The translations under genes and the position numbers were made by a program. The notes beneath the pieces were generated by a model that ran no database searches, had not been told where the DNA came from, and saw only the letters and a list, made by a program, of their open reading frames with translations. Positions 1-44,855 of a stretch of DNA of 48,459 nt are shown piece by piece. Source of the stretch: Clostridia bacterium (lineage in GTDB: Bacteria > Bacillota > DSM-521 > Neomoorellales > JACIYF01); NCBI GenBank assembly GCA_014360065.1, contig JACIYF010000009.1, positions 1 through 48,459 on the forward strand, written 5' to 3'. The stretch's first letter is position 1. Each line of letters starts with the position of its first letter.

Positions 1-81
1 AGGCGACTTTGGGCGAGCCTCGCGAGACGTCGGCGAGACCGAGCCCGGAGGCGGGGCCGAGGACAGGACGTCCGAGGCCGG

Positions 82-210
82 CCTCTTGAGACAGGAGGTC
101 GAATTGGCCGGGAACCCCTCGAAGGGCGAGGGGGAGCCATACGGATCGCTGGCGAGCCCATGTGGAGCCGGCGCCAGCGCTCCGGCATGGGAAATGTTTC
201 GGAAGCATCC
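82..210 (+). ncRNA. Structured leader element, copy 1
   Basis: Near-identical blocks recur at 18081-18298. The element opens with a small hairpin (CCTC/GAGG at 82-98), then a variable stem (CCCCTCG/CGAGGGG here), a conserved block around GGGAGCCATACGGATC, and a hairpin GCCGG (167-171)/CCGGC (182-186) with a 10-nt loop. The loop segment CGCCAGC (172-178) is complementary to GCTGGCG (148-154), which would allow a pseudoknot or an alternative hairpin. The block ends 26 nt before the ATG of the small membrane protein at 237. It looks like a cis-regulatory leader; no known riboswitch class was recognised, and a dispersed repeat is the alternative. Confidence 0.55.
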
Positions 211-236
211 AATAAGGTATCAGGGGAGACGAGGCT

Positions 237-392
237 ATGATATTTTTAAGCATTTGTGGTCTTGCGGTCATTTTGATGCTAGGCTATTACCTCTACCGGC
301 AGAGGACCGATCCGGGCCCAAAAATCTTCCCCTATAATGATGTCCTGGCGGCGAGGAAAACCAGCCAGCCAGGGCCTAATCACCAACCCTAA
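237..392 (+). CDS. Small single-pass membrane protein (51 aa)
   Basis: The frame opens with ATG and encodes 51 residues. Residues 2-20 form one hydrophobic helix (FLSICGLAVILMLGYYLY) followed by a basic RQR, so a membrane anchor with a cytoplasmic Pro-rich tail is likely. A GGGGAG-like ribosome site lies 8-13 nt upstream, right after the structured leader at 82-210. A GC hairpin (GGCGGGG/CCCCGCC, 403-419) follows the stop and could end the transcript, although it lacks a T tract. No family was recognised. The association with the leader and the clean helix argue for a real gene, but its size leaves doubt. Confidence 0.45.
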   Translation: MIFLSICGLAVILMLGYYLYRQRTDPGPKIFPYNDVLAARKTSQPGPNHQP

Positions 393-16465: not shown

Positions 16466-16596
16466 GATGGGGATTAGCTGATGCGAAGGGCGGGGTAGCT
16501 CCACCAAGAGCTACGGTGGGAAGGAGCGGCGGGCCAGGCAGCGAGAGGCAACAATATTTTTAGAAGGGTGCTCTAAGAAGGGTGGGTAAGAGGGAC

Positions 16597-18000
16597 ATGA
16601 GCAAGGGAGCAGCAGGGTATGGGCTTGCGGATACCATTGCTGCCATCAGCACTCCTCCGGGTGAGGGGGGCATCGGCATCGTTCGGCTGAGCGGGCCGGA
16701 GGCCTTGGCTATAGCCTCGCGCATCTTCGTCCCCCGGCGGCCGCGGGATCTTCGTCAAAGCCCTGGTTTTCGTATGTACCTGGGCATGATTGTGGACGGG
16801 GCAGGGGGGCGACCAGTGGATGAGGTTCTGGTATCGGTGATGCGAGCCCCCCGGAGCTATACCGGCGAGGATGTGGTGGAGATCAATTGCCACGGGGGAA
16901 TGGTACCGGTTCGGCGAACCTTGGAGCTGGTATTGAGGGAGGGGGCTAGGTTAGCCGGGCCGGGGGAATTTACTCGGCGGGCTTTTCTCCACGGACGGAT
17001 TGATTTGGCCCAGGCTGAAGCGGTGCTGGACGTGATCCGGGCTCGGACCCGGGCTGGGTTGGAGCTGGCGGTGCGCCAGATAGAGGGGAAGCTGTCCCGC
17101 CGCATCCAGGAGGCGGAACAAGAGCTCATCGGCATTATGGCCAGCTTAGAAGCTAGCATCGATTTTCCTCTAGAGGTGGATGAGCCCGAAGGCGGGGAGT
17201 TGTTGAGGAGGCTTGCGGACCTGCGGGCCCAGCTGGAGGAGTTGATCCGGGGGAGCTCCCAGGGGCGCATCCTCCGGGAAGGGATAAAAGTGGCCATCGT
17301 GGGGCGACCCAACGTGGGCAAATCTAGCTTGCTCAATGGTCTTTTGGGGGAAGAGCGGGCCATCGTTACCGAGGTGCCTGGCACTACCCGAGATCTTATC
17401 AGCGAGGCGGCCAACATCCGGGGAATACCGGTGGAGCTGGTAGATACCGCCGGGATTCGAGAGACGGCTGACCTGGTGGAGCAGCTGGGAGTAGAGAGGA
17501 GCCGCCAAGCCCTGGCCCAAGCTGACGTGGTGTTGCTGGTGGTGGATGGTAGCCAAGGGGCCGATGGGGCCGATGCCCAGTTGGCGGCGGCAGTAGGCGA
17601 TCGCCCCGGGATCTTGGTATACAATAAGATGGACTTGGTTGGAGGCGACAAGCCGGAAGCCGGGGATTGGCTTCCCTCTGGCTGGAGGCAAGTTTATACC
17701 TCGGCCAAAGAAGGCTGGGGTCTAGAGGAATTGCGAGCTATGATTGCGGAAATGGTGCTGGGAGGGGAGGTTAGTCCCGGGACGGAAGTTCTGGTTACCC
17801 GGGCCCGGCACCAGGCAGCCCTGGAAAAGGCGGTGCGGGCCTTAGAGCAAGGGGAAGAGACGGTACAGGCTAAGCTCCCCTTAGATTTATTGGCAGTGGA
17901 TCTCAGGGCGGCAAGGGAAGCCCTGGGGGAGATAACCGGCAGCACCGTGGATGAAGAAGTGTTGGACCGGATCTTTCAGGATTTTTGCGTGGGCAAGTAG
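16597..18000 (+). CDS. mnmE: tRNA-U34 modification GTPase MnmE
   Basis: With MnmG, MnmE forms the 5-carboxymethylaminomethyl (or aminomethyl) group on wobble uridine 34. The N-terminal folate-binding domain begins DTIAAISTPPGEGGIGIVRLSG. The G domain has GRPNVGKSSLLNGL, the TTRD switch, DTAGIRE and NKMD. The C-terminus is FCVGK, the conserved C-x-G-K. I prefer the ATG at 16597; a GTG five codons earlier (16582) is open. mnmG follows after a 319-nt gap that contains the second structured leader. Confidence 0.96.
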   Translation: MSKGAAGYGLADTIAAISTPPGEGGIGIVRLSGPEALAIASRIFVPRRPRDLRQSPGFRMYLGMIVDGAGGRPVDEVLVSVMRAPRSYTGEDVVEINCHGGMVPVRRTLELVLREGARLAGPGEFTRRAFLHGRIDLAQAEAVLDVIRARTRAGLELAVRQIEGKLSRRIQEAEQELIGIMASLEASIDFPLEVDEPEGGELLRRLADLRAQLEELIRGSSQGRILREGIKVAIVGRPNVGKSSLLNGLLGEERAIVTEVPGTTRDLISEAANIRGIPVELVDTAGIRETADLVEQLGVERSRQALAQADVVLLVVDGSQGADGADAQLAAAVGDRPGILVYNKMDLVGGDKPEAGDWLPSGWRQVYTSAKEGWGLEELRAMIAEMVLGGEVSPGTEVLVTRARHQAALEKAVRALEQGEETVQAKLPLDLLAVDLRAAREALGEITGSTVDEEVLDRIFQDFCVGK

Positions 18001-18080: not shown

Positions 18081-18298
18081 CCTCTTGAGACAGGAGGTCG
18101 AATTGGCCGCCCAGCACTCAACCAACCGCGAGGCTGCAGCCCCAGAAACAGCTTGCTGCGTATAGCGTGGATCCCAAGCTTGGGTCAGTCAGTTGGGTGC
18201 TGGGCGCCGAAGGGTGAGGGGGAGCCATACGGATCGCTGGCGAGGTCATTTGGAGCCGGCGCCAGCACCCCGGCATGGGAAACGTTTCGGAAACATCC
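18081..18298 (+). ncRNA. Structured leader element, copy 2, upstream of mnmG
   Basis: It shares with copy 1 (82-210) the opening CCTCTTGAGACAGGAGGTCG and, after a variable part, the whole block from GAAGGG through the 3' end. The variable part here is much longer: GCCCAGCACTCAAC pairs with GTTGGGTGCTGGGC to make a 14-bp stem (one G-T pair) capped by about 75 nt. The hairpin GCCGG (18255-18259)/CCGGC (18270-18274) again has a 10-nt loop, and its CGCCAGC can pair with GCTGGCG (18236-18242). It ends 21 nt before the mnmG GTG. Upstream, GATGGC (18001) can pair with either of two GCCATC copies (18053, about 18075). The rest of the 18001-18319 gap shows no gene. Confidence 0.6.
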
Positions 18299-18319
18299 TA
18301 GGCGGAAAGGGGGTTTACG

Positions 18320-20212
18320 GTGGGATTTCTAGCAGGGAGCTATGATGTAATAGTGGTAGGAGCTGGGCACGCCGGCTGTGAGGCGGCTTTGGCTAGCGCC
18401 AGGCTGGGGTGCCGGACACTTTTAATTACTTTGAATCTGGATAGCATTGCCCTGATGCCCTGTAACCCGGCCGTAGGTGGGCCGGCTAAAGGACATCTGG
18501 TACGGGAGATCGATGCCCTAGGGGGCGAAATGGGACGGGCAGCCGATGCGGCCCGGATCTCCACCCGGTTGCTTAATACCAGCAAGGGTCCGGCGGTACG
18601 GGCGTTGCGGATGGTAGTGGATAAGAGCGCTTACTCCAACTATATGCGTCGGGCCTTGGAAGCTGAGGCTAATTTAGAGCTGAAACAGGCGGAAGTGGTC
18701 AAGCTCCTGGTTAAGGATGGGCGAGCCGCAGGCGTGGTGTGCCGAACCGGAGCCACCTATGAGGCCAGGGCGGTAGTTATTACCACCGGGACCTACCTCC
18801 GGGGGCGGGTTATTATTGGCGAAGTGAGTTTTGCCAGCGGACCCATGGGCCAGTTTCCGGCTCAAGGCCTAAGCGAGGATTTAGCGGCTCTAGGTTTAAA
18901 GGTGGGGCGGTTTAAGACCGGCACCCCAGCTCGAGTAAGCCGCCGGTCGATAGACTTTAGTCGAGTGGAGATTCAGGAGGCGGATGGGGGGGAGCTGCAG
19001 TTTTCCTACTATCAACCGGCGCCTCCCAGGCCCCAGGTGGCTTGTTGGGTTACTAGAACCAACGAGGCTACCCACAGGATCATTCGCGAGAACCTGCACC
19101 GGGCCCCGCTGTTCAGTGGAGCCATTGAGGGCGTAGGGCCGCGTTACTGCCCCTCCATTGAGGACAAGGTGGTGCGGTTCGCTGACAAGCCCAGTCACGT
19201 GGTCTTCCTGGAGCCGGAGGGCCGAGAGGGCGAGGAGATATATGTGCAGGGGATGTCCACTAGCCTGCCGGAGGAGGTGCAGCTGGCCATGCTGCGTACT
19301 CTGCCGGGGCTGGAGCGGGCGGAGATAGTTCGGCCGGGATATGCCATCGAGTACGATTACGTCTCGCCTGAGGAGCTTAGGCCTACTCTGGAAGTCAAGA
19401 AGGTACCGGGACTGTTCTTAGCTGGCCAGATTAACGGTACTTCTGGGTATGAAGAGGCGGCAGGCCAGGGGCTGGTGGCCGGAGTCAACGCGGCCCGGCA
19501 GGTTAGGGGAGAAGGTCCGTTTACCTTAAGTCGGTCGGAGGCTTATATTGGGGTACTAATTGACGATTTGGTTTTTAAAGGCACCAACGAGCCTTATCGG
19601 ATGCTGACTTCCCGGGCCGAGTACCGGCTATTGCTCCGGCACGATAATGCTGATTTGCGGCTGAGCGAGATTGGGCACCGGCTGGGCTTGCTTAAGGAGG
19701 AAGATTATGCTAAGTTCTGCCAAAAAAGAGAGGGTATGCGGGCAGCCCGGGAGGCGCTGAGGAGGATCACAGTTCATCCCGGCCCGGCGGTGGAGTCTTG
19801 GCTGCAAGCAATCAATGGAGGAAAGCTAAGAGGGGCAACTACGGCCGAGGAACTGTTGCGGCGGCCCCAGGTTAGCTATGAGGATTTGGCTGCCCGGGGC
19901 TGGGCGGTGCCGGTAGGGCGGGAGATCGCTCAGGAAGTAGAAGTAGAAATCAAATTCAGCGGTTATATCGCTCGCCAGAAGGAGCAGGTAGAGCGTTGGG
20001 AAAAGATGGAGGAACGGGCTTTGCCGGAGGGTCTGAACTATATGGAAATAGATGGGATTTCCAGCGAAGGACGTCAGAAGCTGGAAGCTTTTAAGCCACG
20101 GTCTTTAGGGCAGGCGGCGCGGATATCGGGAGTGTCGCCGGCGGATGTGCAAATGTTGCTGTTCTACCTGGAGCAGAAGCGTCAAGCCCAAGGGGTTAGG
20201 CAGTCCAGTTGA
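18320..20212 (+). CDS. mnmG: tRNA-U34 modification enzyme MnmG (GidA)
   Basis: MnmG is the FAD enzyme that works with MnmE on tRNA wobble uridine. The N-terminal dinucleotide-binding motif is [19 protein letters not shown], and the family motifs [27 protein letters not shown] and [10 protein letters not shown] follow. The C-terminal part has [20 protein letters not shown]. The length is 630 aa, as usual. The start is GTG with AAAGGGGG upstream. A structured leader ends 21 nt before it. Confidence 0.97.
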
Positions 20213-30536: not shown

Positions 30537-31375
30537 CCTCCGCTGCAGGTGCGCTGGGAAAGGCCCAGATAAGCCCCGTGATCCAGGCGGGATACAGCCC
30601 CTTCTCGGGGGGCTGGGATCTACAGCTCCGCTCCTCCATGTCCTTCGACGAGCGCATCTAGTACCCCGTTGTTTCGGAGAGCAAGCGGCGTACTTTTTGT
30701 CCCCGCCTGTAGGTAGGAACCAAGGTAAGTGAAAATCGTTCACGTAAGCTGAATGCTAGCCTCCTCTACCCGCCTATGCTAGACCCGTCTCAGTTTGTAC
30801 CTCAGCCAGCCACCGGGTGGTAACCAACGTAATCCGCATGGGAAGGATCTTAAAAACACAAGCAGAAGATGCTATAGAACGGTATCGAAACCCATGAGAC
30901 CTCAGGGCTTCTGCACTTGCAGGGGTGATAGTTTCTGCTTTGGGTCTTGGCAAGAGCGATTAAATCTCAACGTTACATTGTGCACCCATTCATTAAAATG
31001 TCTTCTATGGGTGGCTGCGTTAATCTGTCTCTCTCGCCCGCAGTTTTCGCTTCTAACATTTGCTTAGCGTAAAATAACCGTGGGATCTCCCATTTCCTCC
31101 CATGGAAGGCCAAGGGCCTAAAAAAGTTGAGACCTCATATAGCAGCCTTCTCTAAGTACCGGAGATGAAAATCGTGCCTGAACCAGTAAAGGAGTAACCC
31201 TGCGGAAACGGTACCGGCCTGAAGGGAGGGTGGTAGAGCGGAGCAACAGGAAGAACATAGCTTGGCACCATAAGAGCACCCTTTTGTCTCGGTTTCAAGT
31301 GTATCTGCGCTTGACCTTTGCTAATCAATAAACTTTCCCCACTTCGGGTTGACACTAACGGAAGCGGAGCAATGG
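30537..31375. other. Decayed region without an intact gene
   Basis: No frame here resembles a protein family. The stretch 30837-30867 (ATGGGAAGGATCTT onward) nearly repeats 32278-32307, and 31042-31060 (AGTTTTCGCTTCTAACA) repeats the sequence that directly follows it at 32308. So a copy of the 32090-32323 frame's end lies here, split by 174 nt of other sequence (30868-31041). AGGCC/GGCCT at about 31108 forms a hairpin followed by A residues, not a terminator. Confidence 0.5.
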
Positions 31376-32089: not shown

Positions 32090-32323
32090 TTGCTGCGAGT
32101 CCATCCGGAAAGAGCCATACTGTCCCAGGCCAACGCCTCGCTTGATTCACTGTCCGAACGGGAGAGACTTTTAGATGCCGGGGAATACGTTGAGCGGTTA
32201 TGGCAGGATAACCTGGAGGAAGATGGCATGTACATTAAGAAAACCAGGGTTTGGCAACAGGCCCGTTACTATACACACATGGAAAGGATCTTAAAAACAC
32301 AAGTAGAAAGTTTTCGCTTCTAA
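32090..32323 (+). pseudogene. Unrecognised gene, probably a 3' fragment
   Basis: An open frame of 77 codons ends VESFRF. It is charged and helical (SLSERERLLDAGEYVERLW) and no family was recognised. There is no ribosome site at its TTG start. Its last codons and following bases are repeated at 30837-30867 and 31042-31060. It follows the broken PIN gene and is likely another fragment in this decayed zone. Confidence 0.3.
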
Positions 32324-44711: not shown

Positions 44712-44761
44712 CTCGGCAACGGTTGGGCATGAGGGCTTGGGCTTAGGCATAGGTTGGTAAT

Positions 44762-44830
44762 GGGGCGAGGTGCAAGACTAGTCTTTCGCCGGCGCAGCGC
44801 CCCCGGCATGGGAGACATTTCGGGAGCATT
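44762..44830 (+). ncRNA. Structured leader element, copy 3 (short form)
   Basis: Only the 3' part of the element is seen. GCCGG (44788-44792)/CCGGC (44803-44807) again closes a 10-nt loop, and ATGGGAGACATTTCGGGAGC corresponds to the 3' block of copies 1 and 2. The loop differs (CGCAGCGCCC), and the upstream GGGCG (44763-44767) is complementary to its CGCCC, in the same place as GCTGGCG of the other copies. It ends 25 nt before the ATG of the YkvI-like gene. Confidence 0.45.
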
Positions 44831-44855
44831 TGCGGCGATAGGGGAGGGGTAGGTG

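What the first reader, a model, noticed from the sequence alone, without database searches (positions are those of the whole stretch)
82..210. A dispersed structured leader, possibly an undescribed cis-regulatory RNA
Seen directly: three related sequences (82-210, 18081-18298, 44762-44830) each end 21-26 nt before a start codon. In all three a GCCGG/CCGGC hairpin has a 10-nt loop. The loop can pair upstream: CGCCAGC with GCTGGCG in copies 1 and 2, but CGCCC with GGGCG in copy 3, so pairing is kept while the sequence changes. Copies 1 and 2 also share a 5' hairpin and differ in a variable stem (7 bp in one, 14 bp in the other). Placement next to ribosome sites suggests translation control. I recognise no known riboswitch class.
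Basis: partly seen in the sequence, partly recalled or inferred. Interest (0 to 1): 0.75.

Follow-up and report, generated by a model that had tools for sequence, protein, structure and literature searches.

The report
Transposon that lands before ribosome-binding sites
The repeated "RNA leader" is really a small parasitic DNA element, about 100 copies of which in two bacterial genomes have jumped almost always to one spot, just in front of the sequence where ribosomes start reading a gene; relatives of its jumping enzyme do the same, which points to a precise and little-noticed way of choosing targets.

Summary
The three copies are real and have about 48 more relatives in the same genome and about 55 in a second genome of the order. 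Intact copies are about 256-bp elements with about 42-nt inverted ends and flanking 8-bp direct repeats (33 of 50 full-length copies at 7-8/8 identity; about 1 expected). So this is a MITE, not a riboswitch. What is striking is placement: the same end points at a gene, with the purine-rich Shine-Dalgarno (SD) stretch about 3-4 nt beyond the 8-bp repeat and a start codon about 25 nt from the element. The genes are unrelated (mnmG, gatC, atpD, rpmF, pth, purD, hemB). Ends of an IS6-like, zinc-ribbon transposase element match the MITE ends and lie the same way. A relative (1226 bp, 353 aa; dimensions of ISNth1) has 11 of 11 copies with AGGAGG-like motifs exactly 4 nt past the 8-bp repeat, while start codon distance varies. 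MITEs of 97 bp, lacking the "leader" interior, behave alike. Best reading: a non-autonomous passenger of IS6 clade VII transposases that select SD sites. The RNA folds into a rod, but a regulatory role is not shown. 'Directly upstream of a gene' was noted once (ISCbo1, PMC3098183); I found no description of the SD rule.

The parts
1..209 (+). MITE copy 1 (5' ~44 nt lost beyond the contig start); 3' end GGAAGCATC at 209
   Evidence: blastn to family consensus 45-254, 96%; CM R1 hit 119-209, 113 bits
210..217 (+). 8-bp target duplication, gene-side copy (CAATAAGG); the distal copy is off the contig
   Evidence: position inferred from the 8-bp rule; sequence
222..228 (+). SD sequence AGGGGAG, exactly 4 nt after the target duplication
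   Evidence: sequence
237..392 (+). 51-codon ORF downstream of copy 1 (MIFLSICGLAVILMLGYYLYRQ...)
18081..18297 (+). MITE copy 2 (5' part decayed), between an upstream gene on the same strand (16582-18000) and mnmG
   Evidence: absent from short copies, present at two stem tips in long copies, and in a TIR-flanked short element at G000:C29
18309..18313 (+). SD-like GGGGG, 3 nt after the inferred 8-bp target (18298-18305)
18320..20212 (+). mnmG/gidA (GTG start, 22 nt after copy 2)
   Evidence: TIGR00136, E 7.6e-140 for the first 326 aa
44788..44830 (+). MITE copy 3, decayed, 3' part only
   Evidence: CM hit 44747-44830, 36.6 bits; blastn 44788-44829, 86%
44841..44849 (+). SD-like GGGGAGGGG before the gene at 44853 (GTG) / 44856 (ATG)

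Best explanation
The copies are a MITE family: non-autonomous transposable elements of about 256 bp (97-bp and 310-424-bp variants exist) moved by IS6-like transposases of the clostridial zinc-ribbon clade (clade VII of Harmer & Hall, clade h of Varani et al.). Shown: TIRs, 8-bp target duplications, ends shared with an IS that encodes such a transposase, fixed orientation, and an insertion point 3-4 bp upstream of the purine-rich SD stretch of unrelated genes. Inferred: the transposase, perhaps through its N-terminal zinc ribbon, recognises the SD motif (RGGAGG on the sense strand) and always joins the left end to the SD side, cutting an 8-bp target that ends 4 bp before the motif. Inferred: because SD and start codon stay intact next to the element, such insertions are tolerated and accumulate, a 'safe landing' strategy. 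Inferred: the interior folds on itself into a rod closed by the inverted ends, so that in the mRNA the element is looped out as a unit and does not mask the SD.
For: Mobility: of 50 full-length copies 19 have 8/8 and 33 have at least 7/8 identical 8-bp flanks, against a mean of 0.8 in random pairings. Position: in G000 and G014 the SD hexamer most often starts 2-4 nt after the 8-bp repeat and the start codon 16-19 nt after it; element-to-ATG distances peak at 24-28. 84 of 98 copies open an ORF of at least 45 aa 17-36 nt downstream, against 24% at random positions of the same loci. Genes are unrelated. Partner: the IS in G000:C31 (~1377 bp) has ends GATGCTTCCGAAACA.. and GGTCCTTCCGAA.., a DDE_Tnp_IS240 domain and a zinc-ribbon ORF; four of its five accessible left ends abut SD plus start, e.g. 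hbd-like and purC-like genes in G014. Independent relatives: the 1226-bp/353-aa IS of G072, 11/11 with the 8-bp rule, exactly 4 nt, then an AGGAGG-like motif, SD-position spread 0.0 against 1.7 for the start codon; a clade-VIII-like IS in G372 (1 of 1 readable); a Cetobacterium somerae plasmid IS before ggt. The four 96-97-bp MITEs without the interior have 8/8 repeats and the same placement. A short IS6 in G258 shows no such placement at 3 sites.
Against: No complete, evidently active transposase was found in G000 or G014: the only near-complete IS has its two ORFs in different frames and no matching flanking repeat, and G014 holds only remnants. ORF2 of this IS scores 51 bits against NCBI's IS6 cut-off of 125, although PF13610 passes. 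By motif alone, only 34-57% of non-coding SD-like sites in the window are RBSs, so motif recognition must be helped by selection or by something else about initiation sites. The negative control is only 3 sites of one IS. Nothing was tested biochemically.
Confidence: 0.86

Rival explanations
1. It is a cis-regulatory RNA (riboswitch-like or protein-responsive leader) that was spread as a mobile cassette and is kept where it regulates translation; position and orientation reflect selection for function.
For: The full-length element folds far better than shuffles (z -5.9 and -9.6); mutations in copies spare the fold more than randomly placed ones (mean z -1.5 and -2.0; 83% and 96% of copies); one hairpin shows GC-to-AU exchange in 13 of 40 copies.
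Against: 97-bp copies lacking the interior and transposase-bearing relatives with unrelated sequence sit at the same place; perfect 8-bp duplications show recent insertion; the genes share no pathway; copies share sub-family ancestry, so fold conservation is not independent evidence; only 2 of 22 genomes of the order have it.
Confidence: 0.08
2. Insertion is not motif-driven but coupled to translation initiation or transcription (ribosome-bound mRNA, R-loop or open DNA at the leader), so that only true initiation sites are hit.
For: Placement at real RBSs is far above the share of RBSs among SD-like sites of the window (0.34-0.57 of non-coding, 0.09-0.17 of all).
Against: In G072 the insertion point is locked to the SD motif (0 spread) and not to the start codon; several copies lie at G-rich motifs without a gene start, e.g. 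convergent to a ymxH-like gene and antisense inside a Na/Pi-cotransporter-like gene in G014. Purifying selection can remove most in-gene insertions.
Confidence: 0.2
3. Unselective insertion with purifying selection alone: only insertions that leave genes intact survive.
For: Harmful in-gene insertions would be lost, and the SD is left intact.
Against: Random, oriented intergenic positions fall 18-32 nt before a possible start only 4% of the time; 3' ends of genes and wide upstream regions, equally harmless, are almost empty; spacing to the SD is exact in G072.
Confidence: 0.03

Closest known systems
IS6/IS26 family, clostridial zinc-finger clades VII and VIII (ISNth1, ISCbo1, ISCpe7, ISTps1, ISHahy6, ISTet2; PMC6807381; clades h and i of PMC7986276)
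   Same: 8-bp target duplication, TIRs, DDE (IS240-type) catalytic domain, N-terminal zinc ribbon, length class; the G072 IS has the published size of ISNth1 (1226 bp, 353 aa).
   Different: The published descriptions I searched give no target rule; here the target is the SD site, in fixed orientation. The G000 IS is a divergent member (31% identity to the G072 transposase) with the transposase split over two frames.
ISCbo1 in Clostridium botulinum group III (PMC3098183)
   Different: The passages read do not report the SD motif, the 4-bp spacing, the fixed orientation or MITE derivatives.
IS6-family MITEs (MITEBth2, MITEHarch3; two MITEs of 227 and 336 bp according to PMC7986276 and PMC6807381)
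   Same: Size class; both ends of an IS6-family element and no ORF.
   Different: No placement rule is given for them in the passages read; high copy number (>100 in two genomes), rod-like fold and nested hairpin modules are features of this family.
Small interspersed repeats of bacteria such as pneumococcal BOX and RUP (PMC3049150)
   Same: Short, structured, intergenic, high copy.
   Different: From my own knowledge: not fixed at one distance before the SD in one orientation.

Membership tests
MITE (non-autonomous DNA transposon) | terminal inverted repeats, no transposase gene | tested here: met
   GGTGCATCCGAAAG..ATGCCGGGGATGCTGGCG / CGCCAGCGCCCCGGCAT..TTTCGGAAGCATC; 93.7% of cells paired in 40 copies
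MITE (non-autonomous DNA transposon) | target-site duplications | tested here: met
   8 bp; 33 of 50 copies at >=7/8, about 1 expected
MITE (non-autonomous DNA transposon) | ends shared with an autonomous element in the genome | tested here: met
   IS in G000:C31 and C161 begins GATGCTTCCGAAACA, identical over 15 nt to the MITE gene-side end; the IS is not evidently active
IS6 family, clade VII | DDE catalytic domain of IS6/IS240 type | tested here: inconclusive
   G000 ORF2: PF13610 35.1 bits (cut-off 27) met, NF033587 51 bits (cut-off 125) not met; the G072 relative meets both
IS6 family, clade VII | N-terminal zinc finger, IS of 1226-1460 bp, 8-bp duplication | tested here: met
   CxxC ribbons in ORF1; about 1377 bp; 8 bp seen on the MITEs (the one complete IS copy lacks matching flanks). 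G072: 1226 bp, 353 aa, 8 bp
IS6 family, clade VII | single intact transposase ORF | tested here: not met
   The G000 copy has two overlapping frames; frameshifting or decay cannot be told apart
Rfam riboswitch / cis-regulatory RNA | match to a described family | tested here: not met
   no gathering hit in the window or L086; best weak hit 15.7 bits, cut-off 40.6
Rfam riboswitch / cis-regulatory RNA | association with one function or pathway | tested here: not met
   tRNA modification, ribosomal protein, ATP synthase, purine, haem genes and others
Rfam riboswitch / cis-regulatory RNA | covariation beyond relatedness | tested here: inconclusive
Rfam riboswitch / cis-regulatory RNA | effect on expression | not testable with these tools
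   needs transcripts and reporters

The most novel reading that the evidence does not exclude
A whole transposase lineage (IS6 clades VII/VIII) reads the Shine-Dalgarno sequence as its insertion signal, using the one motif that recurs at nearly every gene as a harmless address. Its MITEs have evolved a self-contained RNA fold that hides them inside 5' UTRs, so that about a hundred host genes in two genomes carry a looped-out parasite in their leader.
Probability: 0.55. Interest if true: 0.85.

Novelty: new variant of a known kind. Interest (0 to 1): 0.72.

Why it matters
Most insertion sequences choose targets loosely. A transposase lineage that reads the SD motif with base-pair precision and fixed polarity would be a new targeting mode, could place DNA just upstream of almost any gene without breaking it, and would explain how a parasite reaches about 50 copies, in front of essential genes, in a small genome. 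It also warns that repeated, well-folded 5' leaders in clostridial genomes need not be regulatory RNAs.

Tried and rejected
Rfam at gathering and at permissive thresholds: nothing. Nested 3' core hairpin as the main fold: superseded once the 5' end was found. Search of the order and class with the covariance model: only 22 genomes are held, 2 positive; two weak hits in G009 were not convincing. Phylum searches for more transposases gave few relatives. An automatic TIR plus duplication search on single-copy relatives gave only the Cetobacterium element; the rest looked like chance. The first automatic start-codon assignment mis-assigned short genes and was replaced. No literature describing SD-targeted insertion was found among open papers; subscription papers are not covered.

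Full report
1. Observation. The three sequences are present and related; the 22-nt 3' motif does not occur by chance. They belong to a large family: a covariance model of the 91-nt 3' core finds 51 copies in the window's genome G000 and 55 in G014, a genome of another family of the same order. Exact pattern matches name G014's record as a metagenome-assembled Clostridia bacterium, JASUSV01. No Rfam family matches.

2. Extent. The window copies are 5'-incomplete. Intact copies start GGTGCATCCGAAAGAA and end TTTCGGAAGCATC, mostly 251-260 bp; the two ends form inverted repeats of about 42 nt. Variants of 96-97 bp consist of little more than the two ends; variants of 310-424 bp are longer, several by one or two extra hairpin modules CCCAGCACTCAAC...GTTGAGTGCTGGG at stem tips. 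Copy 2's 'variable stem' is such a module.

3. Mobility. In 50 full-length copies the 8 bp on either side agree at 0.71 identity against 0.28 for random pairing; 33 agree at 7 or 8 of 8, about 1 expected. These are target duplications, so the family moves, or moved recently, by DNA transposition.

4. Placement. The same end faces the gene. The SD-like tetramers peak 11-15 nt and ATG 24-28 nt after the element, i.e. the SD lies about 3-4 nt beyond the 8-bp duplication. 84 of 98 copies open a credible ORF there, against 24% of random positions. Of 10 downstream proteins scanned, all matched known families: mnmG, gatC, ybaB, purH, glpK in G000; atpD, rpmF, pth, purD, aroQ in G014. The 14 others have short or no ORFs; some precede a gene whose start lies further down, and at least two lie at G-rich motifs with no gene start (antisense inside a transporter-like gene; convergent with a ymxH-like gene, named by eye). 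Random oriented intergenic positions meet the distance criterion 4% of the time.

5. The partner element. Searching for the ends found an IS in G000:C31 (second copy broken at a contig end in C161), about 1377 bp, with ends matching both MITE ends in polarity. It encodes a zinc-ribbon protein and, in another frame, a DDE_Tnp_IS240 domain. Its left end lies in front of SD plus start codon in C31, C161, G014:C89 (before an hbd-like gene) and G014:C74 (between purB- and purC-like genes, named by eye); one further degenerate end does not. So the placement belongs to the transposase, not to the leader sequence.

6. Independent test. A transposase with 31% identity in G072 is carried by an IS of 1226 bp and 353 aa, the published size of ISNth1 (table in PMC6807381; the identification is my inference from size only). 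All 11 copies follow one rule: 8-bp duplication, exactly 4 nt, then AGGAGG or a close variant; the start codon follows at variable distance. A clade-VIII-like IS in G372 and an IS on a Cetobacterium somerae plasmid agree. A short IS6 in G258 does not (three sites). The alignment is on the SD, not on the start codon.

7. Fold. The full-length RNA folds as a rod closed by the inverted ends (z -5.9 and -9.6). Mutations in individual copies cost less stability than the same mutations placed at random, and a few helices show exchanges. This suggests that the fold matters to the element. Inverted ends are needed at the DNA level in any case, and sub-family ancestry limits the inference. My preferred reading is that the fold keeps the element from pairing with the neighbouring SD and brings the flanks together; this is inference.

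8. Literature. Harmer & Hall 2019 (PMC6807381) and Varani et al. 2021 (PMC7986276) describe the clostridial zinc-finger clades, with 8-bp duplications; Harmer & Hall found no experimental data on them, and the searched terms gave no target rule. A 2011 genome paper notes that ISCbo1 copies are mostly 'directly upstream a gene' with 8-9-bp repeats (PMC3098183). The precise SD rule, fixed orientation and this MITE family were not found described.

9. Verdict. The cis-regulatory interpretation is displaced by a MITE of an SD-targeting IS6-like lineage. Whether recognition is of the DNA motif or of initiation sites in action remains open.

Noticed in passing
window 18110-18204; L195 (G000:C29:7074-7260); L030 (G000:C116): A ~95-nt palindrome-ended hairpin module (CCCAGCACTCAAC..GTTGAGTGCTGGG) occurs at two stem tips of the MITE and also between bare MITE-type ends, again before an SD-like motif; it may be an independent mobile or recombining module.
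   Followed up: partly
L208:1177-2249 (minus strand): The transposase of the G000 IS lies in two overlapping frames (zinc ribbon, then DDE domain); programmed frameshifting or decay cannot be told apart from one copy.
   Followed up: no
G000:C21:31005 (L087) and G014:C73:13580 (L163): Both genomes carry a MITE before a hemB-like gene (named by eye): shared ancestral or repeated insertion.
   Followed up: no
window 1; many G000 and G014 contigs: Numerous contigs begin or end inside the MITE, which fragments these assemblies; true copy numbers are probably higher.
   Followed up: partly
window 30837-30867 and 32278-32308: A 31-nt direct repeat at 94% identity, 1441 nt apart; not examined.
   Followed up: no
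L253 (NZ_CP143320.1:416214-417534): A Cetobacterium (Fusobacteriota) plasmid has three places with this IS; only one was checked for its target, and it fits the rule.
   Followed up: partly
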